This document shows positions 3,001 through 21,239 of a stretch of DNA of 55,166 bases, piece by piece. The notes under the pieces are model-generated. The model was not told the origin of the DNA. It worked only from the letters and a program-made list of their open reading frames with translations, and made no database searches. Origin of the DNA: Rhodospirillaceae bacterium MC! (GTDB lineage: Bacteria; Pseudomonadota; Alphaproteobacteria; MC1); contig NQOV01000007.1 in the NCBI GenBank assembly GCA_002632265.1, positions 417-55,582 on the forward strand. The letters are read 5' to 3'. The stretch's first letter is position 1. Each line of letters begins with the position of its first letter. Both the position numbers and the translations under genes were made by a program.

Positions 3001-4278
3001 TTAGTATTTATTAACCTTACGACCAGTACGAGCCTTAATGGTTTGTGCTGTTTGGTCTAGGCGTTTAAGTAGATCTTTATTATCGAAGATCACACCAGTA
3101 AATAGCTTGTTTGATTCAAGATTTGCATAATAATAATCTTCGGTAAAGTTAGTTGTCTTAATTATTTTAAGAGCTTTAGCACCAACTAGCCAGATTTTCT
3201 GACCCTTAAAGAATGGTAGTGATTCTTTAAATACATTAGTTTTCTGCATTTTTAACAGACTAGGAAATAAGCCACCTTTAAAAGCAAGGGTTTGAGCTTC
3301 TACGGTTGTGGTATAATATTTCAAGAAATTATATGTAAGTTGTTTATTTTTTGATTTTTGGAACATAAGGAAACCGCTACCGCCTTGAGTTGCGGCTGCC
3401 ACGTCGCCATCGCCATTTTTAGGCAACAACATTACACCCCAATCGCCTTTGGTTTTCGGAGCTCCCATTTCGATATTCCCAGCAAGCCAAATACCCTGCG
3501 GAAGTGCCGAGATAGTGCCTGACGCTATATCACGCATATACGGAGTCCAACCTGTGCCACGATGATGTATGATCCCCGCTTGTTGCATACGTTTAATTAG
3601 CTTTAAGGCCTTGATAGAACGTGGAGAGTTCATGTCTATGTTACCTTTAGCATCAAAATATCCCTTACCGTACTGACCGATCATTAAACGATATACGGTA
3701 TCATCATCATTCCCACCAAACATGAATTTTCCTGTTTTTGCTTTGATGATTTTACCATATTTAAGATAATCTTCCCATGTTTTGATCTGACTAGGTTTAA
3801 CTCCTGCTTTGGCGAATGTACTGCGACGATAAAAGATCACAGCTGGACCACCGTCAAAGGGGAATCCGTACATGTGAGATTTATATTTATAGGCATTTGC
3901 CTTATAGGTAGGGAACAGATTCGCTAGCTTATCGTAACCCATTTTACCCACATTAACGAAACTTCTCGGATAAATTCTCACGAAACTATCAAAGTGATTA
4001 TCTTGAAGTAAAGTAGCGTCTGGCAATCCCTTACCACGAGCCATTAAACCAGCCGATAACTTCTGTAAAAGTGCGGTGTGTCCTAAATTAGTAATTTTAA
4101 TATGTGCATTCGGATGAGCTTTCATGAAGATTTTCGCTGCTTGTTTTAATGGTGGAACATTAATTGTCCATGCCCAAATGTTGGTATTACCTGAAAATCC
4201 GTCTTTCGCTTTCGCCATAGTAGTAAAAGACGTAGCGATCAAGGTTGTAGCTATTGTTGTTAGTAGAATTTTTTTCAT
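3001..4278 (-). CDS. SBP A: periplasmic sugar-binding protein of a CUT1 ABC importer
   Basis: 425 residues. Signal peptide 1-24 (cleavage after AKA) with no lipobox Cys, so a soluble periplasmic protein. Family landmarks: IWAW 34-37, PPL 42-44, SHMYGFP 134-140, FYRRS 149-153, KGDWG 277-281, NGDGD 288-292 and the C-terminal RTGRK. These fit the SBP_bac_1 / MalE-UgpB fold that delivers sugars to MalF/MalG-type permeases. It is the last gene of the D-C-B-A cluster and belongs with B and F (shared KLIKRM, HHR and MRDIA(S/T)GT stretches). Leader is the GAGAACAATAAG type of internal genes. Ligand unknown. Confidence 0.92.
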   Translation of the reverse strand: MKKILLTTIATTLIATSFTTMAKAKDGFSGNTNIWAWTINVPPLKQAAKIFMKAHPNAHIKITNLGHTALLQKLSAGLMARGKGLPDATLLQDNHFDSFVRIYPRSFVNVGKMGYDKLANLFPTYKANAYKYKSHMYGFPFDGGPAVIFYRRSTFAKAGVKPSQIKTWEDYLKYGKIIKAKTGKFMFGGNDDDTVYRLMIGQYGKGYFDAKGNIDMNSPRSIKALKLIKRMQQAGIIHHRGTGWTPYMRDIASGTISALPQGIWLAGNIEMGAPKTKGDWGVMLLPKNGDGDVAAATQGGSGFLMFQKSKNKQLTYNFLKYYTTTVEAQTLAFKGGLFPSLLKMQKTNVFKESLPFFKGQKIWLVGAKALKIIKTTNFTEDYYYANLESNKLFTGVIFDNKDLLKRLDQTAQTIKARTGRKVNKY

Positions 4279-4344
4279 CTTATTGTTCTCGCTTTCGATT
4301 TTGAGTATGAAATTATAATATTGCGATTATTGTGATTGTTATGA

Positions 4345-4380
4345 TTATTGTTAAAGTTAAAGTTAAAGTTAAAGTTAAAA
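4345..4380. repeat. GTTAAA hexamer microsatellite between SBP B and SBP A
   Basis: About five tandem GTTAAA units upstream of the SBP A leader. Slippage here would change spacer length, not coding sequence. Confidence 0.75.
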
Positions 4381-4402
4381 TTATAAAGCAAAATTAAGAA
4401 TA

Positions 4403-5686
4403 TTAATATTGATTTATCTTACGTCCTGTACGAGCTTTTATCGCTTTAGAGGCTCGCTCCAGACGTTTCATTAAATCTTCGTTGTTATATATTACACCTG
4501 AATATAAATTGTGCATTTCTGTTACTGCATAGGCGTAATCTTCTGTAACTTTCTTACCTTTAATTAAAGGTAAAGATTTAGCACCCATTAGCCATATTTT
4601 TTGATTGTGAAAAAATGGTACAGGTTTAGCAATTTCTTTAGTATCCTTAATTGCTAGCAAGCTTGGGAACAAGCCATCCTTAAAGGCTACTAGTTGATTT
4701 TGCGTATTTGTTGTGTAAAACTTCAAGAAATTATAGGTAAGTAATTTATGTTTAGAACTTTTAAACATAACGAATCCACTACCACCTTGAGAAGTTGCGG
4801 CCACGTCGCCATCGCCATTTACAGGTAAAGGGAAGACCCCCCAATCCCCTTTAGTTTTAGGTGCATTGGCTTGGATATTTCCTGCAAGCCAAATACCTTG
4901 AGGCATTGCCGAAACCGTGCCAGTGGCGATATCACGCATATAGGGAGAATGTCCGTCAGAACGATGATGTAAAATCCCTGCCTTTTGCATACGCTTTATT
5001 AGCTTTAAGGCCTTGATAGAATATGGCGATTTAATATCTATATTCCCTTTCGAATCATAATATGATTTACCATATTGACCCAACATAATACGATAAACAG
5101 TATCATCAGCATTCCCACCGAACATATATTTGCCTGTTTTCGCTTTGATGATTTTACCATATTTAATATAATCTTCCCATGTTTTGATCTGACTAGGTTT
5201 TACTCCTGCTTTGGCAAAAGTACTACGACGATAAAAGATCACCGCTGGGCCACTATCAAAGGGAAATCCGTACATGTGAGATTTATATTTATAGGTACTG
5301 GTTTTATATGGAGGAAATAACTTTTCTAACTTATCAAACCCCATTTTTCCCACGTTGACAAAACTATTAGGATAAATTTTCACGTAACTATCAAAATGAT
5401 TATCTTCCATTAAAGTAGCATCCGCCAAGCCCTTACCGTGAGACATCAAGCCAGCTGATATCTTCTCTAAAAGTGCGTCGTATCCTACAGTCGTAATCTT
5501 AATGTGTGCCTTAGGATGAGCTTTCATAAATACTTTCGCCGCCGTTTTTAATGGTGGAACATTAATAGTCCACGCCCAAATATTGATATTCCCTGAATAT
5601 CCGTCATTCGCTTTCGCCTGTGCCACACTGCCGATACTTGTAGCGATCAAGGTAGTAGCTATTGTTGTTAATAAAATCTTTTTCAT
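4403..5686 (-). CDS. SBP B: periplasmic sugar-binding protein paralogue
   Basis: 427 residues, signal peptide ending SVAQA (about 1-24). Closest in motifs to A: SHMYGFPFDSGPAVIFYRRS, IKALKLIKRMQ, HHR, SPYMRDIATGT. Differences from A cluster in MEDNHFDSYVKI, the H-S-P segment before YMRDIA, and the stretch around residues 345-380 where A has AFKGGLFPSLL and B has AFKDGLFPSLL. These differences are more consistent with ligand or interface divergence than decay: no frameshift, full length. Spaced 124 bp from A and 64 bp from C, so co-transcribed with both. Confidence 0.92.
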   Translation of the reverse strand: MKKILLTTIATTLIATSIGSVAQAKANDGYSGNINIWAWTINVPPLKTAAKVFMKAHPKAHIKITTVGYDALLEKISAGLMSHGKGLADATLMEDNHFDSYVKIYPNSFVNVGKMGFDKLEKLFPPYKTSTYKYKSHMYGFPFDSGPAVIFYRRSTFAKAGVKPSQIKTWEDYIKYGKIIKAKTGKYMFGGNADDTVYRIMLGQYGKSYYDSKGNIDIKSPYSIKALKLIKRMQKAGILHHRSDGHSPYMRDIATGTVSAMPQGIWLAGNIQANAPKTKGDWGVFPLPVNGDGDVAATSQGGSGFVMFKSSKHKLLTYNFLKFYTTNTQNQLVAFKDGLFPSLLAIKDTKEIAKPVPFFHNQKIWLMGAKSLPLIKGKKVTEDYAYAVTEMHNLYSGVIYNNEDLMKRLERASKAIKARTGRKINQY

Positions 5687-5750
5687 GTTATTGTTCTCTC
5701 TTTCGATTTTTTATTTCCAATTATTTCAAATTATTTAAATTTATTTAAGT

Positions 5751-7037
5751 TTAATATTGATTTACCTTACGCCCTGTACGAGCTTTTAAAGAAGTAATAG
5801 TTTTTTCTAAACGTTTAACCACATCAATATCAGAAAAGACAATTCCTGTATATAATTTATGTAATTCCATATTAGCATAATAATAATCGCTAGTATAATT
5901 TAAGCGTTTAATGGTATTAACAGTTTTAGACGCTTCTTTCCATACGTTTTGACCTTTAAAAAATGGCATACTAGCATTAAATTCTTTAGTTTTATAAACT
6001 TTCTGTAAAGTTGGAAATAATCCGCCCTTTTTAAATGATATCAATTGGGCTTCTGTAGTTGTTGTATAATATTTCAAGAAATTATATGTAAGAGATTTAT
6101 TTCTTGATTTTTTAAACATAATAAAACTAGCACCACCAAGATTACAAGCAGCCACATCGCCATCGCCATTTACAGGTAAAGGAAACACACCCCAATCGCC
6201 TTTGGTTTTTGGAGCATTAACCATAATACTACCTACAAGCCAAACACCTTCGGGAATCGCTACAATTGTACTTGTAGATATATCACGCATATACGGAGTC
6301 CAACCCGCCGCACGATGATGTAAAATTCCCTCATGCCCCATTTTTTGGATCAACTTCAAAGCGTGAATTGATTGGGGAGATCTCAAATCGATATTCCCTT
6401 TGGCGTCAAAATATCCTTTGCCATATTGTGCCATCATAATACGATAGAATCTATCATCTTCACTACCACCAAGCATATATTTACCTGTTTTAGCTTTGAT
6501 AATTTTACCATATTTGAAGAAGTCATCCCACGTCTTGATCTGGCTAGGTTTTACTCCTGCTTTAGCAAAAATACTGCGACGATAAAAAACCATAGCAGGC
6601 CCACCGTCCAAAGGGAATCCGTACATATGTGATTTATATGTTACATTACCGACCTTATATTTAGGGAATAAGTTGGCTAATTTATCCATACCCATTTTCC
6701 CCACATTCACAAAACTACTAGGATAAATATGTACAAAACTAGCCAAATGATCATCAGGTATTAAAGTAGCATCAGGTAATCCCTTACCATGTGCTATTAA
6801 GCCCACTGATAATTTCTCTAAAAGTGCTTCATGCCCTACGAGAGTAATCTTCACATGTGCGTTAGGATGAGCTTTCATGAATAATTTAGCGGCTGCCTTT
6901 AATGGTGGAATGTTAGCATTCCAAGCCCATATATTGGTATTCCCTGAATATCCGTCATTCGCTTTCGCCTGTGCCACACCACCGATAGTCGTAGCGATTA
7001 AGGTAGTAGCTATTGTTGTTAATAAAATCTTTTTCAT
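5751..7037 (-). CDS. SBP C: periplasmic sugar-binding protein paralogue
   Basis: 428 residues, signal peptide ending GVAQA. Groups with E and G by SPQSIH, KYK-then-TYKSHMYGFPLDGG (shared with G), an extra Lys in the FKKGGLFPT segment (shared with E), and the DIDVVKRL end (shared with G). Carries WNANIPPL near the N-terminus where most copies have WNINVPPL or WTINVPPL. Only 26 bp separate it from D, so it is translated from the same transcript. Leader is GAGAGAACAATAACATG. Confidence 0.92.
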   Translation of the reverse strand: MKKILLTTIATTLIATTIGGVAQAKANDGYSGNTNIWAWNANIPPLKAAAKLFMKAHPNAHVKITLVGHEALLEKLSVGLIAHGKGLPDATLIPDDHLASFVHIYPSSFVNVGKMGMDKLANLFPKYKVGNVTYKSHMYGFPLDGGPAMVFYRRSIFAKAGVKPSQIKTWDDFFKYGKIIKAKTGKYMLGGSEDDRFYRIMMAQYGKGYFDAKGNIDLRSPQSIHALKLIQKMGHEGILHHRAAGWTPYMRDISTSTIVAIPEGVWLVGSIMVNAPKTKGDWGVFPLPVNGDGDVAACNLGGASFIMFKKSRNKSLTYNFLKYYTTTTEAQLISFKKGGLFPTLQKVYKTKEFNASMPFFKGQNVWKEASKTVNTIKRLNYTSDYYYANMELHKLYTGIVFSDIDVVKRLEKTITSLKARTGRKVNQY

Positions 7038-7063
7038 GTTATTGTTCTCTCTTTCGATTGAGA

Positions 7064-8347
7064 TTATTTATATTGGTTGATTTTACGGCCTGTACGAGCT
7101 TTTAGTGCTTTAGTGGCTTGGTCGAGACGTTTCATTACGTCAGCATGTGCAAACATAATTCCAGAATACATTTTCTTTACTTCGGCATTACCATAGAAGT
7201 AATCTTGAGTATAGTGTACAGGTTTAATTTTCTTAATTACTTTAGCACCCTCTGCCCAAACGTGCTGATTTTTAAAGAAAGGTACGCCTGCATTAAATTC
7301 TTTAGTTTTATAAACTTTTCCTAATGTTGGAAATAATCCGCCTTTAAAAGCTGTTACTTGAGATTGTTTTGCAGTTGTGAAATACTTTAAGAAATTATAT
7401 GTAAGTGTTTTATTTTTTGATTTATTCAACATAACAAAACCACTACCACCTTGAGCGGAAGCACTTACATCGCCATCGCCATTAATAGGTAAAGGGAACA
7501 CTCCCCAATCGCCCTTAGTTTTAGGAGCTACGGTTTCGATATTACCTTCAAGCCAAATACCTTGGGGAATTGCAACCAAGTTACCCGATGCGATATCACG
7601 CATATACGGATCCCACCCAGGACTACAATGATCTAAGATACCTGCGTCATTCATTTTCTTCAACATCTTCAAAGCTTTTACAGAGGCAGGAGATTTTAGA
7701 TCAATATTCCCTTTTGTATCAAAATATGACTTACCATATTGACCTAGCATAACTAGATATATCGCATTATCCGAGCCACTAAACATATACTTACCTGTTT
7801 TAGCTTTAATAATTTTACCATACTTTAAAAAGTCATCCCATGTCTTGATCTGGCTAGGTTTTACCCCTGCTTTAGCAAAGACACTTCTACGATAGAACAC
7901 CATAGCGGGACCACCGTCAAAGGGAAATCCGTACATATGAGATTTATATTTAAAACTATTTGATTTGTAATTTGGAAATAAATTTGCTAGCTTATCATAG
8001 CCCATAGTTCCCACATTAACAAAACTTCTAGGATAAATCTTCACAAAACTATCAAAGTTAGAATCTTCTATTAGTGTTGCGTCTGGCAATCCCTTACCGT
8101 GAGACATTAATCCTGTAGATAATTTTTTATAAAGATCTTCACGCCCTACTTCGGTAATCTTAATATGAGCTTGTGGGTGAGTTTTCATAAAAGCTTTTGC
8201 CGCCGCCTTTAAAGGTGGCACATTGATATTCCAAGCCCAAACATTCGTACTCCCTGAATATCCGTTACTCGTTCTCGCCTGTGCCACACCACCAATAGTC
8301 ATGGCAATTAAAGTACTAGCTACTGTTGTTAATAAAATTTTTTTCAT
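7064..8347 (-). CDS. SBP D: periplasmic sugar-binding protein paralogue, first gene of the D-C-B-A unit
   Basis: 427 residues, signal peptide ending GVAQA. Groups with H, I, J and K by WNINVPPLKAAAKAFMK, SPASVKALK and a terminal RTGRKINQYK. It has one residue fewer in the GGNDDD region (GSDNAIY) and a Cys in DHCSPGW where others have HHRAAGW. It has its own promoter and the AAGGAATAATTTATG leader that marks promoter-proximal copies. Confidence 0.92.
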   Translation of the reverse strand: MKKILLTTVASTLIAMTIGGVAQARTSNGYSGSTNVWAWNINVPPLKAAAKAFMKTHPQAHIKITEVGREDLYKKLSTGLMSHGKGLPDATLIEDSNFDSFVKIYPRSFVNVGTMGYDKLANLFPNYKSNSFKYKSHMYGFPFDGGPAMVFYRRSVFAKAGVKPSQIKTWDDFLKYGKIIKAKTGKYMFSGSDNAIYLVMLGQYGKSYFDTKGNIDLKSPASVKALKMLKKMNDAGILDHCSPGWDPYMRDIASGNLVAIPQGIWLEGNIETVAPKTKGDWGVFPLPINGDGDVSASAQGGSGFVMLNKSKNKTLTYNFLKYFTTAKQSQVTAFKGGLFPTLGKVYKTKEFNAGVPFFKNQHVWAEGAKVIKKIKPVHYTQDYFYGNAEVKKMYSGIMFAHADVMKRLDQATKALKARTGRKINQYK

Positions 8348-8361
8348 AAATTATTCCTTTG

Positions 8362-8395
8362 CAGTTATTTTAGTTTTAGTTTTAGTTTTAGTTTT
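8362..8395. repeat. TTTTAG hexamer repeat in the SBP D leader
   Basis: About five TTTTAG units lie between the SBP D start codon and its promoter, so length changes would alter the 5' untranslated region. Confidence 0.7.
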
Positions 8396-8454
8396 ATTTT
8401 TATTTTGTATTTTACTATATTTTACTTTGTTTGATAATAAATAAAATACGTAAC

Positions 8455-8474
8455 AACAACCCTTTAAGATTACT
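8455..8474 (-). promoter_or_regulatory. Degenerate copy of the palindromic operator ahead of SBP D
   Basis: AACAACC-CTTTAA-GATTACT. It keeps the GATTACT half-site in the same position relative to the -10 box as in the K and remnant promoters. Confidence 0.45.
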
Positions 8475-8483
8475 GTTAGGTAT

Positions 8484-8512
8484 AGTATAACACATGCTAT
8501 CTATAAATGCAA
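8484..8512 (-). promoter_or_regulatory. Promoter of the D-C-B-A SBP unit
   Basis: Minus strand TTGCAT (8507-8512), 17-base spacer, TATACT (8484-8489), the same hexamers as the K and remnant promoters. Together with the MFS terminator it explains the 8348-8655 spacer. Confidence 0.65.
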
Positions 8513-8597
8513 TAAAAAACTAATATAAATCTTATATAGTGCATTGTCAGACTATTATTTTATAATATAAAGGATAAGGAATAAGGATAGGAAATAA

Positions 8598-8633
8598 AAA
8601 TATTGCTATAGTATAATTACTATAGCAATATTT
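8598..8633 (-). terminator. Terminator of the MFS sugar porter gene
   Basis: Perfect 15-bp inverted repeat AAATATTGCTATAGT / ACTATAGCAATATTT with a 6-base loop, followed on the minus strand by TTTTTATTT. It lies 22 bp past the stop of the MFS gene. Confidence 0.85.
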
Positions 8634-8655
8634 AAAGTTTAAAGTTATATGATAT

Positions 8656-10242
8656 TTATTTTTTAACTATTAGCATTTCCTCTATGCTTTCTATGGTTTT
8701 ATCTTTAGTTTCAGGGACAAATATTATAATAAATACTAAAGAGAAAGCTGCTAAGACAGCATATACTAAGAAAGTATTGGCACTCCCAAAAGTAGCTAAT
8801 TGCCATGGGAAAAGTTGTTGGGTTGCGTATACCCCTATACTACCAAGAATTTTAAAGGCAGGGATACCAATAGAACGGACGGAGTTTGGTAGTATCTCGG
8901 AGAACATTACCCATAATAGCGGCCCTACCGCTAGGAAGAATGCTATCTCGAAGACGAAGATTGCGACAACAATTAACATGGGATTTACGCCAAAGACAGC
9001 GGTGGCTTTAATTAAGACAGAGCTTTTTAAATCCAATATTTTTTTACTATAATTCTTTCTTAAAAATGCTTTAAACTTTAATTCATTGGAAAAAGATCTA
9101 TTTAAGTTATTTTGCAATGGAGTAACATCAAGGTTTTTATCTACTTTCTGCACTTGCACGATTGAATCTTGACTAATTGTATAACTCATTTTATGGAAAC
9201 CATAATAAATGGAACTATGGGCAAATAACACAGCTACAGCACCAGCTATATATAACATACGGCGTCCGAATCTATCGACAATAAATAAAGTTCCGATAGA
9301 TGCCAGCACTCCAGCACCACCTACTAACATGGTTTGAAAGGCTGCAGAGTTACCACCAAAACCAGCTTCTTCAAATACTATAGGAGCATAATAAGATATA
9401 ATTCCCATACCACACATTGCTTGACTGATAGCTAAACCAAATCCGATAATTAGTATTTTTTTCATTTTACCATCAAATAAACGGATTAATTGTTCCCATA
9501 TTCTTAATTTAGGTAAATATTCCACATTAGCTCTAATTTCGGCAATTACGTCTTCGGCAACTTCTGGGGGATTTACTGTACGAATAACTTTTTCGGCTTC
9601 TTTGAATTTATCCTTTAACATTAACCATCTTGGAGTTTCTGGAACTATGAATAATGTTACTAACCATATGATACAAGGAATCATTGTAGAACCAATCATG
9701 AAACGCCATATGTGAGTATCGCTAAAAATGAATGATTGTGCCATAGCTTCAGGGTTTGAGTTTTTATGTATAAGAAATAAATAGCATATTATATAAGCCA
9801 TTAAAAAACCGATAGTATTAGAAACGATCATACCTGCAACCGCTTTACCACGCATATGACTTGGAGCAACCTCACCAATATACATGGAAATCACGCCCAA
9901 TGATGTGAACGCCATACCACCTAGTAATCTTGCAATTACTAAAGAGTAGTATCCTACGCAAAAGGCAGAACCAATTGCAGAAATTAAAAATAAGAATGCA
10001 ATTAGTAATAATGTTTTCTTTCTTCCGTATATGGATGCCACTTGTCCGATAAACATTAAGGCAATCACAGCACCAAAGTTTGGTGCTCCTACCAATGCAC
10101 CCACTTCGGATGGCGTTAAATTAAATTCAACTCTAATATATTTTAAAGCTCCTACAATTATACCGCCGTCTAAACCAAATATTAGACCTCCTAGCGATAC
10201 AATGATTGCAAATAAATATGCTTTTTGTGTATGTTTTGTCAT
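8656..10242 (-). CDS. MFS sugar porter (XylE/GalP/AraE-like proton symporter)
   Basis: 528 residues with about twelve membrane segments. Sugar-porter signatures: GRKKTLLL after helix 2, PETPRWLM before the central loop, DRFGRRMLY after helix 8, PLLWVMFSEILP at helix 10 and VPETKDKT at the end. The family moves monosaccharides with protons. It is about 50-60 residues longer than typical members. The excess is a hydrophilic periplasmic loop before the NPMLIVVAIFVFE segment, containing QKVDKNLDVTPLQNNLNRSF. It interrupts the SBP array and suggests a second route of sugar entry. Confidence 0.93.
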   Translation of the reverse strand: MTKHTQKAYLFAIIVSLGGLIFGLDGGIIVGALKYIRVEFNLTPSEVGALVGAPNFGAVIALMFIGQVASIYGRKKTLLLIAFLFLISAIGSAFCVGYYSLVIARLLGGMAFTSLGVISMYIGEVAPSHMRGKAVAGMIVSNTIGFLMAYIICYLFLIHKNSNPEAMAQSFIFSDTHIWRFMIGSTMIPCIIWLVTLFIVPETPRWLMLKDKFKEAEKVIRTVNPPEVAEDVIAEIRANVEYLPKLRIWEQLIRLFDGKMKKILIIGFGLAISQAMCGMGIISYYAPIVFEEAGFGGNSAAFQTMLVGGAGVLASIGTLFIVDRFGRRMLYIAGAVAVLFAHSSIYYGFHKMSYTISQDSIVQVQKVDKNLDVTPLQNNLNRSFSNELKFKAFLRKNYSKKILDLKSSVLIKATAVFGVNPMLIVVAIFVFEIAFFLAVGPLLWVMFSEILPNSVRSIGIPAFKILGSIGVYATQQLFPWQLATFGSANTFLVYAVLAAFSLVFIIIFVPETKDKTIESIEEMLIVKK

Positions 10243-10993: not shown

Positions 10994-10994
10994 T

Positions 10995-11071: not shown

Positions 11072-11096
11072 AGTAACAATTGTGATATAAATTTAA

Positions 11097-12465: not shown

Positions 12466-12480
12466 ATTTTTATAGTCTTG

Positions 12481-12632: not shown

Positions 12633-12656
12633 CGCAATAAATAAAATGATATCTTA

Positions 12657-13931
12657 TTAGTATGTATTAACCTTACGCCCTGTACGAGCTTTTAATGTTT
12701 TAACTGCTTGATCTAGACGTTTCATTAAATCTTCATTATTATAGATTGCACCTGTGAATAATTTATGAACTTCTTCAATGGCATAGGAATGATCTATGGT
12801 ATTATTTACTGATCTAATTAAAGGTAAAGCCTTAGCTCCCACTTGCCATATTTTTTGTCCTTTAAAGAATGGTAATGCTTGAGAGAATTCTTTAGTATTA
12901 CGCATTTTTAACAGACTTGAGAAAAATCCGCCTTTAAAAGCGATTTTTTGAGCTTCTAGAGTAGTTGTGTAATATTTCAAGAAATTATATGTAAGAGGTT
13001 TATTTTTTGAATGTGCGAACATAACGAATCCGCTACCACCGTGAGAGGCTGCGGCCACGTCGCCATCGCCGTTTACAGGTAGGCTCATAATTCCCCAATC
13101 GCCTTTGGTTTTAGGTGCTCCTTTTACGATACTAGCCTTAAGCCAAATACCGCTCGGAATAGCCGAAACTGTACCAGTGGCGATATCTCGCATGAACGGA
13201 GTCCAACCTGTGGCACGATGATGTAAAATTCCTTCTTTTTCCATACGTTTGATGAACTTCAGAGTTTTGATCGAACGTGGCGATTTTAAATCGATGTTAC
13301 CTTTAGCGTCAAAATAACTTTTGCCGTATTGTTGCATCATGATTGTATAAGGAGCGTCATCATCATAGCCACCGAACATGAATTTGCCTGTTTTCGCTTT
13401 GATGATTTTACCATATTTTAGATAATCATCCCATGTTTTAATATCGCTAGGTTTTACTCCTGCCTTAGCAAATGTACTTCTACGATAAAATATCACTGCT
13501 GGACCACTATCAAAGGGAAAGCCGTACATATGAGATTTATATTTATAAACATTTGCCTTATAGGCAGGGAATAACCCTGTTAGTTTATCCATTCCCATTT
13601 TACCGACATTAACAAAACTTCTCGGATAAATCTTCACATAGCTATCGAAACGTTTATCTTCCATTAAAGTAGCGTCTGGCAAGCCTTTACCGTGAGCTAC
13701 TAACCCAGCCGATAACTTACTTAAAAGAGATTCGTATCCTATGGTAGCAATCTTAATATGTGCTTGCGGATGTTTTTTCATGAAGATTTTCGCTGCGGCC
13801 TGCAATGGCGGAATGTTCATAGTCCACGCCCAAATAGTTGTCGTACCTGAATAGGGTCCAGCCTGTGCCATACTACCGAAACTTGTAGCGATTAATGTGG
13901 TTGCTATTGTTGTTAATAGAATTTTTTTCAT
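12657..13931 (-). CDS. SBP F: periplasmic sugar-binding protein paralogue
   Basis: 424 residues, signal peptide ending SMAQA. Same subgroup as A and B: SHMYGFPFDSGPAVIFYRRS, SIKTLKFIKRM, MRDIATGT, EDLMKRLDQ. Distinct features: MQQYGKSYFD, IMSLPVNGDGD, FFSSLLKM and SVNNTIDHSYAIEE in place of the usual NYTEDYYYANLE. Upstream it has its own SBP-type promoter and a perfect operator-like palindrome. Its first roughly 45 leader bases are identical to those of G, pointing to recent duplication or conversion. Confidence 0.92.
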   Translation of the reverse strand: MKKILLTTIATTLIATSFGSMAQAGPYSGTTTIWAWTMNIPPLQAAAKIFMKKHPQAHIKIATIGYESLLSKLSAGLVAHGKGLPDATLMEDKRFDSYVKIYPRSFVNVGKMGMDKLTGLFPAYKANVYKYKSHMYGFPFDSGPAVIFYRRSTFAKAGVKPSDIKTWDDYLKYGKIIKAKTGKFMFGGYDDDAPYTIMMQQYGKSYFDAKGNIDLKSPRSIKTLKFIKRMEKEGILHHRATGWTPFMRDIATGTVSAIPSGIWLKASIVKGAPKTKGDWGIMSLPVNGDGDVAAASHGGSGFVMFAHSKNKPLTYNFLKYYTTTLEAQKIAFKGGFFSSLLKMRNTKEFSQALPFFKGQKIWQVGAKALPLIRSVNNTIDHSYAIEEVHKLFTGAIYNNEDLMKRLDQAVKTLKARTGRKVNTY

Positions 13932-14038
13932 GTGGTTGTTCTCTCTTTCAATTTTGAGATTAAATTTATGATTTGTTTTTATGTTTATATTTGATATTGA
14001 TATTTTACCTTATTTTTATAACAAAGAAAATATATCAT

Positions 14039-14058
14039 AGTAATTTTTTGCAATTACT
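14039..14058 (-). promoter_or_regulatory. Perfect palindromic operator/hairpin ahead of SBP F
   Basis: AGTAATT-TTTTGC-AATTACT, a perfect 7-bp inverted repeat just downstream of the -10. Compared with the K copy (AGTAATC...GATTACT) the innermost pair has changed on both sides, preserving the palindrome. Confidence 0.6.
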
Positions 14059-14067
14059 ACACCATAT

Positions 14068-14096
14068 AGTATAACATATATAAATGCAATAAACAA
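14068..14096 (-). promoter_or_regulatory. Promoter of SBP F
   Basis: Minus strand TATACT at 14068-14073. The ancestral TTGCAT is only 10 bases away here because the spacer is shorter than in K. TTGTTT at 14091-14096 gives a 17-base spacing and is the better -35. Activity may differ from the sister promoters. Confidence 0.5.
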
Positions 14097-14115
14097 CTAA
14101 ATAAATTATGAATTT

Positions 14116-14146
14116 ATTAGATTATTAGATTATTAGATTATTAATA
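14116..14146. repeat. GATTATTA octamer repeat at the 3' end of SBP G
   Basis: Three to four tandem units of AGATTATT directly adjoin the stop codon of SBP G. Confidence 0.6.
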
Positions 14147-15415
14147 TTGATTAACCTTACGCCCTGTACGAGCTTTTAAAGAATCAATGGTTTTAGTTAA
14201 GCGTTTCACTACATCAATATCAGTGAAGACCATTCCTGAATATAGTTTTCTTACTTCTAGATTAGCATAATAATAATCTTCGGTATAATTAACTTTTTTG
14301 ATTAATTTTGTAGTGTCAGCCGCTATTTTCCAGACTTTTTGATTTTTGAAAAAAGGCATCTTTGCATTAAACTCTTTAGTTTTATAAACTGTTGTTAAAG
14401 TGGGAAATAATCCAGCTTTAAAGGCAAGTAATTGGGGTGCGGTTGTGGTTGTATAGTATTTTAAAAAGTTATATGTAAGAGCTTTATTTCTTGATTTTTT
14501 AAACATAACAAAACTAGCACCACCAAGGTTACTAGCGTGTACATCACCATCGCCATTTGCAGGTAAAGGGAACACTCCCCAATCGCCTTTGGTTTTTGGA
14601 GCTGCGGTTTCAATGTTTCCCGCTAGCCACACACCCTCGGGGATAGCTGATACAGTGCCTGTAGCCATATCACGCATGGACGGACTCCAACCTGCTGCAC
14701 GATTGTGTAAAATCCCAGCTTTACCCATTTTCTGGATGAACTGTAAAGTATGAATAGATTGTGGCGATTTTAAATCTATGTTCCCTTTTGCGTCAAAATA
14801 TCCTTTGCCGTATTGCCCAATCATTATACGATACAAGCCGTCATCATCACTACCACCACACATATAATGACCTGTTTTAGCTTTTATTATTTTACCATAT
14901 TTTAGGAAGTCATCCCACGTTTTGATATCACGTGGATTTACCCCAGCTTTAGCAAAAGTACTTCTACGATAAAAAATCACAGCTGGGCCACCGTCCAAAG
15001 GAAAGCCGTACATATGTGATTTATATGTTATATTAGCCACTTTATATTTGGGAAATAGCTTTGCGGTCTGATCCATACCCATTTTCCCCACATTGACAAA
15101 ACTACTAGGATAAATATTGACAAAACTAGAGAAATGATCATCAGGTAGTAAAGTAGCGTCTGGCAATCCCTTACCATGAGCGACCAAACCTGCCGATAAT
15201 TTCTCTAAAAGAGCGTCATGTCCTATGGTGCTTATTTTTATGTGTGCTTGCGGATGAGCTTTCATGAACATTTTTGCCGATTGTTGTAATGGCGGAACAT
15301 TAATAGTCCACGCCCACACGTTTATTTTACCTGAAAACTCTCCAGCATTCGCCATACTAGCGAAACCTGTAGCGATTAGAGTGCTTGCTATTGTTGTTAA
15401 TAGAATTTTTTTCAT
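14141..15415 (-). CDS. SBP G: periplasmic sugar-binding protein paralogue
   Basis: 424 residues, signal peptide ending SMANA. Same subgroup as C: LPDDHFSSFV, KYK-then-TYKSHMYGFPLDGG, SPQSIH, DIDVVKRL ending. It differs from all others in NPRDIKTW (usually KPSQIKTW), HYMCGGSDDD with a Cys, and PTLTTVYKTK. Leader is GAGAGAACAACCACATG. Lies 205 bp downstream of H, separated by a large palindromic element, so read-through from H may be partial. Confidence 0.92.
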   Translation of the reverse strand: MKKILLTTIASTLIATGFASMANAGEFSGKINVWAWTINVPPLQQSAKMFMKAHPQAHIKISTIGHDALLEKLSAGLVAHGKGLPDATLLPDDHFSSFVNIYPSSFVNVGKMGMDQTAKLFPKYKVANITYKSHMYGFPLDGGPAVIFYRRSTFAKAGVNPRDIKTWDDFLKYGKIIKAKTGHYMCGGSDDDGLYRIMIGQYGKGYFDAKGNIDLKSPQSIHTLQFIQKMGKAGILHNRAAGWSPSMRDMATGTVSAIPEGVWLAGNIETAAPKTKGDWGVFPLPANGDGDVHASNLGGASFVMFKKSRNKALTYNFLKYYTTTTAPQLLAFKAGLFPTLTTVYKTKEFNAKMPFFKNQKVWKIAADTTKLIKKVNYTEDYYYANLEVRKLYSGMVFTDIDVVKRLTKTIDSLKARTGRKVNQY

Positions 15416-15503
15416 GTGGTTGTTCTCTCTTTCAATTTTGAGATTAAATTTATGATTGTGAATAGATTGTGAATATAAAATTCTTGCTTATTTAAATGAT
15501 ATG

Positions 15504-15590
15504 AAAATGAGATGTGTGTATCTTAAATTATGGCGACATTTACTCTATCTTAAGCTTAGTCATGATTAATTTAAGACACATATCTCATTC
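15504..15590. repeat. Dispersed palindromic element, copy 1 (between SBP H and G)
   Basis: Left arm GAGATGTGTGTATCTTAAATTA (15509-15530) pairs with TAATTTAAGACACATATCTC (15567-15586). The centre GGCGACATTTACTC matches GGCGACGTGTACTC in the element at 47591. It probably also acts as a terminator or attenuator after SBP H. Confidence 0.6.
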
Positions 15591-15620
15591 TCACATATCT
15601 CATTTTTTTTCACAGTCGTT

Positions 15621-16901
15621 TTATTTATATTCGTTGATTTTACGTCCTGTACGACTGTGTAAGGCTTGTGCGGCCTGATCTAGACGTTTCATTAAGTTAC
15701 CACCGTCGGCGAAGATTACTCCTGATTGTAATTTACCCATTTCCAATTCTGCATAATGGAAATCGTTTGTAAAGTCAATAGGTCTGATAATTTTTACCGC
15801 TTTGGCAGCTTCTGTCCATACTTTTTGCCCCTTAAAGAAAGGCACGCCTGCATTAAATTCTTTAGTTTTATAAACCTTATTTAATGTTGGGAATAGTCCC
15901 TCTTTAAATGCGACCAATTGCGGATGTAATTCCGTTGTGAAATATTTCAAGAATGCGTATGTAAGAGCTTTGTTTTTTGATTTCTGTAGCATAACAAAAG
16001 CACTACCGCCATAAGCTGCCGATCCCACATCGCCATCGCCATTTACAGGCAACGGCATTACGCCCCATTTGCCCTTACTCTTAGGAGCTACGGTTTCGAT
16101 ATTCCCCTCAAGCCAAGCCCCAGCAGGCACGGCTGCGACTGTGCCTCTTGTAAGCTCACGCAAGAACGAGTTCCAACCTGCGGCACGATGATGTAAGATC
16201 CCCGCTTTGTTCATTTTTTGTAAGAACTTCAAAACTTTAATAGAACGTGGCGATTTTAAATCGATATTCCCATTTTTATCATAGTATCGCTTACCATACT
16301 GTTCCATCATGATACGATATACGCTATCATCATCATTACCGCCGAACATGAATTTACCTGTTTTCGCTTTGATAATTTTACCATACTTTAAGAAGTCATT
16401 CCACGTCTTGATCTGGCTAGGTTTTACTCCTGCTTTAGCAAAAACATCTCGTCTATAAAAGACTAAAACTGGGCCACCGTCAAAGGGAAATCCGTACATA
16501 TGAGATTTATATTTAAAAGCATTGGATTTATAAACAGGGAATAAATTCGCTAATTTATCCATTCCCATTTTGCCCACATTGACAAAACTTCTAGGATAAA
16601 GACCAACGAAACTATTAAAATGTTGATCCTGCATTAATAAAGCGTCTGGCAATCCTTTACCATGAGCAATCAGCCCAATTGACAACTTCTCTAAAATATC
16701 CCCACCACCAACTAAGCTGATCTTAATGTGAGTATTCGGATGAGCCTGCATAAACTCCTTTGCCGCTGATTTTAACGGCGGAATGTTAATATTCCACGCC
16801 CATATAGTAGTATTACCTGAAAGTGCTTTCCCATTCGCCACACCACCAAAGGCAGTAGCAATTAAAGTACTAGCTATTGTTGTTAATAAAATCTTTTTCA
16901 T
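15621..16901 (-). CDS. SBP H: periplasmic sugar-binding protein paralogue
   Basis: 426 residues from the ATG at 16901, chosen because MKKILLTT is the conserved family start. An in-frame ATG seven codons upstream (MKRENNK) simply overlaps the AGAGAGAACAATAAG ribosome-binding region shared by other copies. Subgroup D/I/J/K. It is the most divergent of that group: GGGDILEKLSIG, MQDQHFNSFVGLYP, YRRDVFAKAG, NSFLRELTRGTVAAVPAGAW and ALHSRTGRKINEYK. Full length with an intact signal peptide. Confidence 0.92.
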   Translation of the reverse strand: MKKILLTTIASTLIATAFGGVANGKALSGNTTIWAWNINIPPLKSAAKEFMQAHPNTHIKISLVGGGDILEKLSIGLIAHGKGLPDALLMQDQHFNSFVGLYPRSFVNVGKMGMDKLANLFPVYKSNAFKYKSHMYGFPFDGGPVLVFYRRDVFAKAGVKPSQIKTWNDFLKYGKIIKAKTGKFMFGGNDDDSVYRIMMEQYGKRYYDKNGNIDLKSPRSIKVLKFLQKMNKAGILHHRAAGWNSFLRELTRGTVAAVPAGAWLEGNIETVAPKSKGKWGVMPLPVNGDGDVGSAAYGGSAFVMLQKSKNKALTYAFLKYFTTELHPQLVAFKEGLFPTLNKVYKTKEFNAGVPFFKGQKVWTEAAKAVKIIRPIDFTNDFHYAELEMGKLQSGVIFADGGNLMKRLDQAAQALHSRTGRKINEYK

Positions 16902-16959
16902 CTTATTGTTCTCTCTTTTCATTTGAATATAAATTTATAATATTTGTAATATTGTGATT

Positions 16960-17024
16960 GTTAAAATTAAAAGTTAAAAGTTGAAGTTAAAAGTTAAAAA
17001 ATAAAAGTTGAAGTTAAAAAATAA
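16960..17024. repeat. AAAGTTRAA-type simple repeats between SBP I and SBP H
   Basis: Irregular tandem GTTAAAA / GTTGAA units fill the spacer upstream of H. They resemble the GTTAAA repeat at 4345 and the TTAAGGTT repeat at 18343. Confidence 0.6.
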
Positions 17025-17026
17025 GG

Positions 17027-18304
17027 TTATTTATATTGATGTACCTTTCGCCCCGTACGGGCTTGTAGAGCGTGGACTGATTGGTCTAAGCGTTTCATTA
17101 AATCGCCACCTGTGAATATTACACCAGAAAATAATTTACTTAATTCTAGATTGGCATAATAATAATCTTCGGTAAAGTTAACCGCTTTCATACTATTACT
17201 AGCTTTTGCCGCTTCTAGCCATACTTTTTGATTATGAAAGAAAGGTACGCCTGCATTAAATTCTTTAGTTTTATATACTTTCTTTAATGTAGGGAATAAT
17301 CCTGCCTTAAATGAAACCAATTGAGATTGAGTTTCGGTTGTGAAATATTTTAAGAAATTATAAGTAAGTGCTTTATTTCTTGATTTTTTCAACATCACGA
17401 AACTAGTACCGCCATTGAAAGCCGAGGCCACATCGCCATCGCCATTTACAGGTAAAGGGAAGACACCCCAATCGCCTTTAGTTTTTGGTGCTCCAATTTC
17501 AATATTTCCCTCAAGCCAAACACCTGACGGAATAGCAACAATAGTACCAGTAGCAATCTCACGCATGAAAGTATCCCAACCTGCACCACTATGATGTAAA
17601 ATCCCTTCGTTCGCCATTTTTTGAATAAGTTTCCACGCTCTCACAGATATAGGATTTTTTAAGTCTATATTACCTTTACTATCGTAATATCCCTTACCGT
17701 ACTGTCCTGCCATTATGCGATAAATACCGTCGCCATCGCTTCCGCTAAACATATATTTACCTGTTTTAGCTTTGATGATTTTACCATATTTTATAAAGTC
17801 ATCCCATGTTTTGATCTGGCTAGGTTTGACCCCTGCCTTAGCAAAAATACTGCGACGATAAAAGATCATAGCTGGACCAATACCAAAAGGTAAACCATAA
17901 ATACGAGATTTATAACTTGCTGACTGGATTTTATAAGCAGGAAATAAATTAGCTAATTTACTAAATCCCATTTTTCCCACATCAACAAAACTACTAGGAT
18001 AAATTTTAATGAAACTATCAAAATGATCATCTTCCATTAAGGTACTATCAGGCAATCCCTTACCATGTGCGACCAATCCTGCCGATAATTTCTCGTAAAG
18101 ATCATCATGACCCCTTGCCACGATCTTAATATGTGCTTGCGGATGAAGTTTCATAAAGGATTTTGCTACCGCCTTTAAAGGTGGCACGTTGATATTCCAC
18201 GCCCAAATAGTTGACGTCCCTGAAAACGCCCCCGCATGAGCCACACCACCGATTGTCGTGGCAAGTAAGGTACTTGCTATTGTTGTTAATAAAATCTTTT
18301 TCAT
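17027..18304 (-). CDS. SBP I: periplasmic sugar-binding protein paralogue
   Basis: 425 residues, signal peptide ending GVAHA. It differs from every other copy at the otherwise invariant SHMYGFP(F/L)DGGP motif, here SRIYGLPFGIGP. That motif lines the family's most conserved block, so ligand handling may be altered. It also has KLHPQAHIKIVARGHDDLYEKL and NPISVRAWKLIQKM. The C-terminus ends RTGRKVHQYK. Lies 78 bp downstream of J and 122 bp upstream of H. Confidence 0.92.
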   Translation of the reverse strand: MKKILLTTIASTLLATTIGGVAHAGAFSGTSTIWAWNINVPPLKAVAKSFMKLHPQAHIKIVARGHDDLYEKLSAGLVAHGKGLPDSTLMEDDHFDSFIKIYPSSFVDVGKMGFSKLANLFPAYKIQSASYKSRIYGLPFGIGPAMIFYRRSIFAKAGVKPSQIKTWDDFIKYGKIIKAKTGKYMFSGSDGDGIYRIMAGQYGKGYYDSKGNIDLKNPISVRAWKLIQKMANEGILHHSGAGWDTFMREIATGTIVAIPSGVWLEGNIEIGAPKTKGDWGVFPLPVNGDGDVASAFNGGTSFVMLKKSRNKALTYNFLKYFTTETQSQLVSFKAGLFPTLKKVYKTKEFNAGVPFFHNQKVWLEAAKASNSMKAVNFTEDYYYANLELSKLFSGVIFTGGDLMKRLDQSVHALQARTGRKVHQYK

Positions 18305-18342
18305 ATTTTTTTCTCTCTTTCGATTTAAATATTGTGATTGTT

Positions 18343-18385
18343 AAATTTAAGGTTAAATTTAAGGTTGAAGTTAAAGTTAAAGTTA
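18343..18385. repeat. TTAAGGTT/GTTAAA simple repeats between SBP J and SBP I
   Basis: Tandem GTTAAATTTAAG and GTTAAA units fill most of the 78-bp spacer. Confidence 0.6.
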
Positions 18386-19666
18386 TTTATACTGATTTAC
18401 CTTACGCCCTGTACGAGCTTGTAAAGTGTGAATGGCTTGATCTAGACGTTTAATCAAATTACCTTTCCCTGTAAAAATTACGCCAGAAAGTAATTTTCCT
18501 ACTTCTATATTGGCATAATAATAATCTTCGGTATAATTAATGGGTTTCACTACATGAACAGCTTTAGCTGCTTCCATATATATCTTTTGCCCTTTAAAAA
18601 AAGGTACGCCTGCATTAAATTCTTTAGTTTTATAAACTGTTTTTAATGTTGGAAATAATCCCACTTTAAAAGCTCCCAATTGTGCTTTGGTTGTGGTTGT
18701 ATAATATTTTAAAAAATTATATGTAAGTGCTTGATGTTTTGAGTATTTAAACACAACAAAACCACCACCGCCATGGGCAGCAGAAGCCACATCGCCATCG
18801 CCATTTACAGGTAAAGGGAACACACCCCAATCGCCTTTGGTTTTTGGTGCACCAAGTTTGATAGTACCTCTAAGCCAAACCCCAGACGGAATAGCCACAA
18901 TAGTACCAGAGCTAATATCTCGCACAGATGGAGTCCAGCCTGACGCACGATAATGCAAAATACCCGCCTTAGCCATATTTTGAAGACGTTGTAAAACTTT
19001 AACAGATACAGGAGATTTTAAATCAATGTTACCATTGTTATCATAATATCCTTTACCGTATTGCCCTACCATGATACGATAAACACCATCATCATCATTA
19101 CCACCAAACATATATTTACCTGTTTTAGCTTTAATGATTTTACCATACTTTAGGAAGTCATCCCATGTCTTGATCTGGCTAGGTTTTACCCCTGCTTTAG
19201 CAAAAGCACTTCTACGATAAAAAACCATAGCCGGACCACCGTCAAGGGGAAAGCCATACATATGAGATTTATAGGTAAAGGCCTTTGCCTTATAGTTAGG
19301 GAATCTGTTAATGAATTTATCCATACCCATTTTGCCTACATTAACAAAACTGCTCGGATAAATTTTCACAAAACTATCAAAATGATCATCTTCAATTAGA
19401 CTAGCGTCAGGCAAGCCCTTACCACGTGCGACCAATCCTGCTGATATCTTTTGATAAATATTATCATGACCGCTTTGAGTGATCTTAATATGTGCTTGCG
19501 GATGAGCTTTCATAAAATCTTTTGCCGCCGCTTGTAACGGTGGTAAATTGATATTCCACGCCCAAATATTAATACTGCCTGAAAATCCATTACTCGCATG
19601 TGCCATACCGCCGAAACTGCTGGCAAGTAAGGTAGTTGCTATTGTTGTTAATAAAATCTTTTTCAT
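18383..19666 (-). CDS. SBP J: periplasmic sugar-binding protein paralogue
   Basis: 427 residues, signal peptide ending GMAHA. Subgroup D/H/I/K. Distinctive stretches: WNINLPPLQAAAKDFMK, KFINRFPNYKAKAFTYKSHMYGFPLDGG, SVKVLQRLQNMAKAG, HYRASGWTPSVRDISSG and LRGTIKLGAP. Tail is RTGRKVNQYK. Second gene of the K-led unit. A hairpin between K and J may lower its expression relative to K. Confidence 0.92.
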   Translation of the reverse strand: MKKILLTTIATTLLASSFGGMAHASNGFSGSINIWAWNINLPPLQAAAKDFMKAHPQAHIKITQSGHDNIYQKISAGLVARGKGLPDASLIEDDHFDSFVKIYPSSFVNVGKMGMDKFINRFPNYKAKAFTYKSHMYGFPLDGGPAMVFYRRSAFAKAGVKPSQIKTWDDFLKYGKIIKAKTGKYMFGGNDDDGVYRIMVGQYGKGYYDNNGNIDLKSPVSVKVLQRLQNMAKAGILHYRASGWTPSVRDISSGTIVAIPSGVWLRGTIKLGAPKTKGDWGVFPLPVNGDGDVASAAHGGGGFVVFKYSKHQALTYNFLKYYTTTTKAQLGAFKVGLFPTLKTVYKTKEFNAGVPFFKGQKIYMEAAKAVHVVKPINYTEDYYYANIEVGKLLSGVIFTGKGNLIKRLDQAIHTLQARTGRKVNQYK

Positions 19667-19838
19667 ATTTTTTCTCTCTTTCGATTTAATTCAATTTGAG
19701 TATTTTTATATATGATTATATTTGTATTTATTATTTTTGTTGTTTTTTTGTTTGTATTTTTATTCTTTTTATTATTCTTATTTTTGTTATTTTTATCATA
19801 TTACAAAGTAAACTTAATAATTAATATAATTCAATTGA

Positions 19839-19890
19839 AGTCATTGAAGATACCATAAATAATGAAATAAATAGTATCTTCTTTATGACT
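19839..19890 (-). terminator. Putative terminator/attenuator after SBP K
   Basis: Imperfect stem AGTCATTGAAGATAC / GTATCTTCTTTATGACT with a 20-base AT-rich loop, lying between the K stop and the J start. No strong T-run directly follows, so partial termination or 3'-end protection is more likely. The rest of the 19667-19964 spacer is simple AT/GT-rich sequence. Confidence 0.45.
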
Positions 19891-19964
19891 GAATATAACT
19901 TACTGAATGTAACTTACTTAATATAAGTTATTTAATATAAGTTATGTTAGGTTAGGTTAAGTTA

Positions 19965-21239
19965 TTAGTACTGGTTTGCTTTGCGACCTGTACGAGCTTT
20001 TAAGCTTTTTACAGCTTGATCTAAACGTTTAACCATATTGGTATTTGTAAAGATTGCACCTGAATATAATTTGCCTAATTCCATATTGGCATAATAATAA
20101 TCTTCGGTATAATTAACTGGTTTAATTACTTTAATAGCTTTAGCAGCCTCTAGCCAGATTTTTTGACCTTTGAAGAAAGGTATACCTGCACTAAATTCTT
20201 TAGTTGTATAAACTTTATTTAGTGTTGGGAATAATCCTGCTTTAAAGGCAACCAATTGAGCTGATGTTTCTGTTGTGAAGTATTTTAAAAAGCTATATGT
20301 AAGAGCTTTATTGCGTGATTTTTTAAGCATAACAAACCCGCTACCACCTTGAGAGGCTGACGCCACATCGCCATCGCCATTTACAGGCAAAGGCATTACA
20401 CCCCAATCGCCTTTAGTTTTTGGTGCTGACGATTCGATATTACCTTCAAGCCAAGCCCCTGCAGGAATAGCTACAACTGTACCAGTGGAAATATCACGCA
20501 TGAACGGATTCCAACCTGGAGCACGTTGATGTAAGATCCCTGCTTTAGCCATTTTTTGAATGAATTGCAAAGCTTTAACCGATTTAGGATTTTTTAGATC
20601 AATATTACCTTTAACATCGTAATATCCTTTACCGTACTGGCCTGCCATTATGCGATATGAACCATCGTCATTACTACCACCAAACATAAATTTGCCTGTT
20701 TTCGCTTTGATGATTTTACCATATTTTAAGAAGTCATTCCACGTCTTGATCTGACTAGGTTTTACACCTGCTTTAGCAAATGCACTGCGACGATAAAAGA
20801 TCATAGCTGGACCACCATCAAGGGGAAATCCGTACATATGAGATTTATATTTAAAAGCACTTGCTTTATAATCAGGGAAAAGATTCGTTAATTTATCAAA
20901 CCCCATAGTTCCCACATTAACAAAACTTCTAGGATAAATCTTCACAAAGCTATCAAAGTGATCATCTTCAATTAGGGTAGCATCAGGCAAGCCTTTACCA
21001 CGAGCGATCAAGCCAGCCGATAATTTTTGATATACATCATTATGACCAATTTCTGTAATCTTAATATGTGCTTTCGGATGAAGTTTCATAAATGCTTTTG
21101 CCGCCGCCTTTAAAGGTGGCACATTAATATTCCAAGCCCAAATATTGGCAGAGCCTGTAAATTGACCAGCATTCGCTACACCACCAAAGGTAGTAGCAAT
21201 TAAAGTAGTAGCTATTGTTGTTAATAAAATCTTTTTCAT
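19965..21239 (-). CDS. SBP K: periplasmic sugar-binding protein paralogue, promoter-proximal copy
   Basis: 424 residues, signal peptide ending GVANA. It carries many of the residues shared most widely across the family: WNINVPPLKAAAKAFMK, SHMYGFPLDGGPAMIFYRRS, MRDISTGTVVAIPAGAW and NYTEDYYYANMELGKLYSG. It is the first gene next to the divergent AraC-type regulator, with the best-preserved promoter and a perfect operator palindrome. That makes it the likeliest directly regulated, ancestral-like copy. Confidence 0.93.
   Translation of the reverse strand: MKKILLTTIATTLIATTFGGVANAGQFTGSANIWAWNINVPPLKAAAKAFMKLHPKAHIKITEIGHNDVYQKLSAGLIARGKGLPDATLIEDDHFDSFVKIYPRSFVNVGTMGFDKLTNLFPDYKASAFKYKSHMYGFPLDGGPAMIFYRRSAFAKAGVKPSQIKTWNDFLKYGKIIKAKTGKFMFGGSNDDGSYRIMAGQYGKGYYDVKGNIDLKNPKSVKALQFIQKMAKAGILHQRAPGWNPFMRDISTGTVVAIPAGAWLEGNIESSAPKTKGDWGVMPLPVNGDGDVASASQGGSGFVMLKKSRNKALTYSFLKYFTTETSAQLVAFKAGLFPTLNKVYTTKEFSAGIPFFKGQKIWLEAAKAIKVIKPVNYTEDYYYANMELGKLYSGAIFTNTNMVKRLDQAVKSLKARTGRKANQY

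What the first reader, a model, noticed from the sequence alone, without database searches (positions are those of the whole stretch)
3001..21239. Eleven tandem sugar-binding proteins with one permease pair and no ATPase
Eleven full-length, signal-peptide-bearing CUT1 binding proteins (A to K) occupy about 18 kb, with a single MalF/MalG pair beside them. All keep an open frame of 424-429 residues and the family landmarks, so selection maintains them. A typical CUT1 operon has one SBP per permease pair. The simplest reading is a many-to-one importer: a common permease (and distant ATPase) served by a diversified set of SBPs, each for a different glycan or abundant for scavenging. An expansion of this scale in an otherwise small genome would be unusual.
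Basis: partly seen in the sequence, partly recalled or inferred. Interest (0 to 1): 0.88.

Follow-up and report, generated by a model that had tools for sequence, protein, structure and literature searches.

The report
Eleven sugar-binding receptors sharing one importer
A small-genome gammaproteobacterium carries eleven related but differently pocketed sugar-catching proteins in a row, all apparently feeding one membrane importer with a shared motor, an extreme form of an arrangement known before with only a few receptors per importer.

Summary
In detail: eleven intact, paralogous CUT1 solute-binding proteins (424-429 aa, 61-76% identical) lie in one 18-kb run upstream of one MalF/MalG-type pair. 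An MFS sugar porter (8656-10242) sits inside the run. A GH2 glycosidase follows MalG and is completed on another contig that overlaps by 62 nt. No ATPase follows; the genome's only MalK/UgpC-type ATPase lies elsewhere (contig C19) among housekeeping genes. Eleven of the fourteen CUT1-type binding proteins in this 2.05-Mb genome are here; the two other CUT1-type permease pairs have their own. A promoter module (exact 14-mer, only four copies in the genome) precedes three receptor units and the permease unit. A dead receptor start remains directly before MalF, where homologous operons keep their single receptor. In 80 homologous named loci, 77 have one receptor beside the pair and none more than two. 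The eleven form one clade under purifying selection, yet alignment-mapped ligand-contact positions vary more than in single-receptor relatives (p 0.013-0.024). Best reading: a many-to-one oligosaccharide importer, probably for beta-galactoside-type glycans, with a diversified receptor set. Bifidobacterium (2-3 receptors), Borrelia OppA (five) and TTT-family expansions are precedents. Ligands and docking are untested.

The parts
3001..4278 (-). SBP A (425 aa)
   Evidence: ORF and alignment A1; SBP_bac_8/SBP_bac_1
4403..5686 (-). SBP B (427 aa)
5751..7037 (-). SBP C (428 aa)
7064..8347 (-). SBP D (427 aa)
8656..10242 (-). MFS sugar porter interrupting the SBP run
   Evidence: Sugar_tr PF00083 E 1e-73
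11097..12386 (-). SBP E (429 aa)
12657..13931 (-). SBP F (424 aa)
14141..15415 (-). SBP G (424 aa)
15621..16901 (-). SBP H (426 aa from the conserved start; ORF opens at 16922)
17027..18304 (-). SBP I (425 aa)
18383..19666 (-). SBP J (427 aa)
19965..21239 (-). SBP K (424 aa), first of the run; AlphaFold model pLDDT 95.8
2575..2673 (-). vestigial SBP start (32-codon ORF MKKKLLITILTT...) directly before MalF: remains of a dead receptor gene
   Evidence: local alignment to starts of the other SBPs scores 12-30 against shuffle maxima of 13-15; best G 30, most copies above the shuffles, E not; upstream region 77% identical to that of K over 257 nt
1580..2437 (-). MalF/UgpA-type permease
   Evidence: BPD_transp_1; 42-52% identical to MalF of homologous operons
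756..1580 (-). MalG/UgpE-type permease
   Evidence: BPD_transp_1
3..545 (-). N-terminal part of GH2 glycosidase (rest on contig C6, exact 62-nt overlap)
   Evidence: Glyco_hydro_2 domains; contig join; closest to GH2 beside homologous CUT1 pairs
21530..22402 (+). divergent AraC-family regulator
   Evidence: HTH_18, RhaS-like
21310..21402 (-). promoter module upstream of K (TTATTGCATTTATA ... TGTTATACT ... AGTAATC-N6-GATTACT)
14010..14100 (-). promoter module upstream of F
8430..8525 (-). promoter module upstream of D
2735..2830 (-). promoter module upstream of the dead SBP and MalF-MalG-GH2

Best explanation
A many-to-one CUT1 ABC importer. A duplicated ancestral receptor gene gave eleven periplasmic binding proteins. 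They share the fold and a very conserved segment (residues about 149-188) but differ at ligand-contact positions. Each captures a related oligosaccharide, probably beta-galactoside-type, and delivers it to the single MalF-MalG pair. ATP is supplied by the genome's only MalK/UgpC-type ATPase, encoded on another contig and presumably shared with two other CUT1-type pairs. Imported sugar is then cleaved by the GH2 encoded next to MalG. Receptor units and the permease unit are co-regulated by one duplicated promoter module, perhaps under the divergent AraC protein. Shown: gene content, intactness, single permease pair and single candidate ATPase, shared promoter-like module, dead receptor before MalF, monophyly, purifying selection, excess variation at mapped contact positions. 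Inferred: docking of all eleven to this pair, ligand classes, ATPase sharing, co-transcription, AraC control.
For: Own-genome inventory: 11 of 14 CUT1-type SBPs here; the C13 and C7 pairs have their own SBPs; one TOBE_2/OB_MalK ATPase. Homologous operons carry one SBP immediately before MalF, and here that slot holds a dead SBP start. The exact 14-mer TTATTGCATTTATA occurs 4 times in 2.05 Mb, all upstream of K, F, D and the MalF unit (about 0.2 expected from base composition, own estimate); the K and MalF promoter regions are 77% identical over 257 nt. One clade, 100/100. dN/dS 0.14-0.26. Contact-position entropy excess over single-SBP orthologues 0.51 against -0.05 for all positions (p 0.013; 0.34, p 0.024 for the wider set). 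Homologues of the GH2 and of the MalK sit in homologous operons. Fold: best PDB matches Bal6GBP 6q5g/6h0h, Z 43.5/41.7.
Against: No ligand or docking data. Contact positions were mapped by alignment to CebE at about 20% identity, not read from model coordinates; the p-values are modest and the strict set of 12 was settled after an entropy table of the eleven paralogues had been seen. Pocket dN/dS is 0.30, above the rest (0.20) but below 1. Some copies may be redundant.
Confidence: 0.7

Rival explanations
1. Dosage: the copies bind much the same ligand and are kept to flood the periplasm with receptor for scavenging; pocket differences are near-neutral drift.
For: All eleven keep the core pocket: W37, W264, G300 and L90 invariant, D142 in 10 of 11. 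Intergenic gaps are short and several copies share the same leader before the start codon.
Against: Dosage predicts pocket conservation at least as strong as in orthologues, but contact positions are the more variable ones: position 92 is E in all 11 orthologues and Q/E/P/T here; 69, 298 and 301 also vary. The copies are old (dS about 0.75-1.7) and not homogenised (longest exact match between any two copies 50 nt).
Confidence: 0.2
2. Some of the eleven serve other transporters (the C13 or C7 pairs, or the embedded MFS porter) or act as sensors rather than transport receptors.
For: One ATPase seems to serve several pairs, so cross-talk is plausible; an MFS porter lies inside the run. TTT-family SBP expansions are found beside sensor and transporter genes of other families (PMC5994714).
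Against: C13 and C7 have their own SBPs with little or no similarity to the eleven; the promoter module ties three SBP units to the MalF unit.
Confidence: 0.09
3. Annotation or assembly artefact: collapsed repeats or decaying pseudogenes.
For: The assembly is a 19-contig draft and contig C11 breaks inside the adjacent GH2.
Against: Copies differ by 24-39% in protein sequence, all frames are open, selection is purifying, the GH2 break joins by a 62-nt overlap, and the genome is 95.5% complete with 0.04% contamination.
Confidence: 0.01

Closest known systems
Bifidobacterium longum 105-A BL105A_0500-0502 (three adjacent SBP genes homologous to Bal6GBP, galacto-oligosaccharide/lactulose)
   Same: CUT1 SBPs of the same structural family; adjacent paralogues; loss of one (0502) impairs lactulose use (PMC8110962)
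   Different: three genes, not eleven; a Gram-positive organism
Bifidobacterium animalis subsp. lactis BlMnBP1/BlMnBP2 (two SBPs, one mannoside importer)
   Same: duplicated SBPs of one ABC transporter with a pocket change altering affinity (PMC8106489)
   Different: two copies, mannosides
Bal6GBP (PDB 6h0h/6q5g), beta-1,6-galactobiose-binding SBP
   Same: closest solved fold: Foldseek E 1e-27, VIA Z 43.5; profile E 1.2e-32
   Different: 23-24% identity; lipoprotein-type N-terminus (own reading)
Bacillaceae SBP-MalF-MalG-beta-galactosidase operons (for example Neobacillus, Metabacillus, Alkalihalobacillus)
   Same: homologous MalF (45-52%), same gene order, beta-galactosidase-type partners judged by eye
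   Different: one SBP, two in A. macyae
Vibrio sinensis operon (locus L118)
   Same: SBP-MalF-MalG-GH2-MalK order; GH2 36% and MalK 53% identical to the ones here
   Different: one SBP, ATPase inside the operon, neighbouring genes resembling a porin and a GH53 galactanase (by eye)
Borrelia burgdorferi Opp system (five OppA receptors)
   Same: several paralogous SBPs with different pockets in one ABC transport system (PMC7822543; single permease from own knowledge)
   Different: peptides, five receptors, not all in one place (own knowledge)
TTT-family SBP expansions (Bordetella Bugs, 434 in Rhodoplanes)
   Same: lineage-specific SBP expansion (PMC5994714)
   Different: not ABC, dispersed over the genome

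Membership tests
CUT1 ABC importer (MalEFGK2 type) | SBP of SBP_bac_1/SBP_bac_8 family with signal peptide | tested here: met
   all eleven over cut-off; AlphaFold/Foldseek SBP fold of K; signal peptide read by eye
CUT1 ABC importer (MalEFGK2 type) | two different BPD_transp_1 permeases in tandem | tested here: met
   756-1580 and 1580-2437
CUT1 ABC importer (MalEFGK2 type) | MalK/UgpC-type ATPase with regulatory OB/TOBE domain | tested here: met
   one in the genome, C19, OB_MalK plus TOBE_2; that it serves this pair is inferred
CUT1 ABC importer (MalEFGK2 type) | SBP-dependent ATP-driven sugar uptake | not testable with these tools
   needs biochemistry
multi-receptor (many-to-one) ABC importer | more receptors than permease pairs, no other cognate pair | tested here: met
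   11 SBPs, 1 pair; the other two CUT1-type pairs have own SBPs
multi-receptor (many-to-one) ABC importer | receptors differ in ligand pocket | tested here: met
   mapped contact positions vary, p 0.013-0.024 against orthologues; alignment-based
multi-receptor (many-to-one) ABC importer | each receptor docks on the same permease | not testable with these tools
beta-galactoside importer (Bal6GBP/LacZ-linked operons) | linked beta-galactosidase-type GH | tested here: met
   GH2 with GalA/LacZ4-type hits below equivalog cut-offs, closest to GH2 beside homologous pairs
beta-galactoside importer (Bal6GBP/LacZ-linked operons) | binds galactosides | not testable with these tools
   no ligand assay; several pockets depart from the orthologue pattern

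The most novel reading that the evidence does not exclude
A single ABC sugar permease is served by eleven functionally distinct, co-regulated receptors from one tandem array, more than any ABC importer known to me, showing that a CUT1 translocation pore can be near ligand-agnostic while receptor duplication alone widens its diet.
Probability: 0.5. Interest if true: 0.72.

Novelty: new variant of a known kind. Interest (0 to 1): 0.55.

Why it matters
It offers a natural set of eleven receptors for one permease, which makes it possible to test how much of an ABC importer's specificity lies in the receptor and how many receptors one permease can serve. The dead receptor before MalF and the duplicated promoter also record how such an array grew and took over from the original receptor.

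Tried and rejected
Genome-contig scan with the SBP alignment: patterns fell on the signal peptide and a helix, no relatives; a second scan with the permease worked. Class-wide search found no comparable SBP in 384 other genomes of the class at E 1e-25; the phylum-wide sample found 12 other genomes with one match each at E 1e-40, nine of them of the same class (only up to four candidates per genome are scored there). Basic charge (pI 9.7-10) as a hint of sulfated or acidic ligands was rejected as specific evidence: unrelated SBPs of this genome are basic too. Recent gene conversion: no long identical tracts inside the genes, apart from a 42-nt identical leader before F and G. Other SBP remnants in the intergenic gaps: only the one before MalF. 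Centring a search on the Bacillaceae failed because loci are not accepted as centres. Naming the organism was not possible; no relative nearer than the class was returned among the genomes held. 'Gammaproteobacterium' is my reading, not a tool result.

Full report
OBSERVATION. Eleven intact CUT1-type binding-protein genes lie on the - strand between 3001 and 21239. All match SBP_bac_8 and SBP_bac_1 over the cut-offs without internal stops. They are 424-429 aa and 61-76% identical, with near-identical signal peptides without a lipobox. An MFS sugar porter (8656-10242) separates D from E. MalF/UgpA-type and MalG/UgpE-type permeases follow at 1580-2437 and 756-1580. A GH2 gene begins at the window's edge; contig C11 ends inside it, but contig C6 overlaps C11 by 62 nt and carries the rest, after which a convergent gene follows. 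The operon therefore appears to end with GH2 and has no ATPase. A divergent AraC-family regulator lies at 21530-22402.

GENOME CONTEXT. The genome (2.05 Mb, 19 contigs, 95.5% complete) has fourteen CUT1-type SBPs: these eleven, one beside a permease pair on C13, and two tandem copies (74% identical) beside an LplB/YtcP-like pair on C7 (the C7 type named by eye from sequence). The remaining two SBP_bac_1 hits, on C14 and C18, lie beside other transporter types. The C13 and C7 SBPs have little or no similarity to the eleven. A single ATPase with OB_MalK and TOBE_2 domains was found, on C19 among housekeeping genes. It is 53-56% identical to MalK proteins found beside homologous permease pairs of other Pseudomonadota. 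Sharing one ATPase between several CUT1 pairs is established in Gram-positives (MsmX/MsmK, own knowledge) and is inferred here.

LINK BETWEEN RECEPTORS AND PERMEASE. The regions upstream of K, F, D and of the MalF unit share a promoter-like module: TTATTGCATTTATA, a TGTTATACT-type -10, and an imperfect palindrome AGTAATC-N6-GATTACT. The exact 14-mer occurs four times in the whole genome, only at these places; about 0.2 would be expected from base composition (own estimate). The K and MalF upstream regions are 77% identical over 257 nt. Directly before MalF, where homologous operons carry their single SBP, lies a 32-codon ORF (2575-2673) that begins like the other SBPs and is then lost. Its alignment scores against the starts of most copies exceed all shuffles (G 30 against a maximum of 13; E, 12 against 13, does not). 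The simplest history is an AraC-promoter-SBP-MalF-MalG-GH2 operon whose SBP multiplied upstream while the copy next to MalF died.

COMPARISON. Of 80 named homologous loci found with the permease, 77 have one comparable SBP beside the pair, one (Alkalihalobacillus macyae) has two in tandem, one has none within the stretch held and in one the gene is split; further SBP hits in a few of these loci lie several kilobases away. In the eight loci read in detail, neighbours include beta-galactosidase-type genes, alpha-galactosidase-like and galactose-pathway genes, judged by eye from sequence starts. Twelve other Pseudomonadota genomes in a sample of 398 have one match each (at most four candidates per genome are scored). 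The eleven form one clade (100/100) on a long stem, with subclades {A,B,F}, {C,E,G} and an unresolved rest D,H,I,J,K, so subfamilies are interleaved along the array.

FUNCTIONAL DIVERGENCE. All pairwise dN/dS values are 0.14-0.26 with dS about 0.75-1.7: old copies, all maintained. K folds with pLDDT 95.8; its best structural matches are Bal6GBP (beta-1,6-galactobiose) and its relatives. Ligand contacts of CebE (PDB 8BFY, Table 2 of PMC10714786) were mapped by alignment. Compared with eleven single-receptor Bacillaceae orthologues that are less alike overall (62% against 68%), contact positions vary more in the paralogues: excess entropy 0.51 (12 positions) or 0.34 (19 positions) against -0.05 overall, p 0.013 and 0.024. 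Position 92 (E in all eleven orthologues) is Q E P E T E P Q E E E in A to K; 69, 298, 301 and 390 also differ, while W37, W264 and G300 are invariant. Pocket dN/dS is 0.30 against 0.20 elsewhere: relaxed or diversified, not demonstrably positive selection. Residues about 149-188 are far more conserved than in the orthologues, as a common partner would require, but that they face the permease was not tested.

KNOWN PARALLELS. Three adjacent Bal6GBP-like SBPs in Bifidobacterium longum (PMC8110962), two in a B. animalis mannoside importer (PMC8106489), five OppA in Borrelia (PMC7822543) and the TTT-family expansions (PMC5994714) show that the principle is known. Eleven in one ABC array is, to my knowledge, the extreme for a sugar ABC importer, but the literature search was not exhaustive. 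I file it as a new variant of a known kind.

Noticed in passing
L037 (own genome C7:203000-213000): A second CUT1-type (LplB/YtcP-like) permease pair also has two tandem SBPs, 74% identical, so receptor duplication recurs in this genome.
   Followed up: partly
L033 (own genome C13:1-12000): A third CUT1 system with one SBP beside two closely similar GH43-like genes, a sulfatase, a sodium:solute symporter and a LacY-type MFS.
   Followed up: partly
L142 (own genome C15:24000-36000): Cluster of sulfatases, GH2 and two LacY-like MFS genes resembling the C13 one: the organism seems equipped for sulfated glycans.
   Followed up: partly
window 8656-10242 and L143 (C2): MFS sugar porter inside the SBP run has a close-looking relative on C2; why it interrupts the array is unclear.
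   Followed up: no
own genome, several loci: Periplasmic binding proteins of unrelated systems are strongly basic (pI 9.4-9.9), unlike most homologues of the eleven (pI mostly 4-6).
   Followed up: partly
window 13932-13973 and 15416-15457 (approximate): The 42-nt leaders right before the start codons of F and G are identical although the proteins are only 67% identical.
   Followed up: no
window 23914-25248: Ankyrin-repeat protein between the MurD and NusA genes.
   Followed up: no
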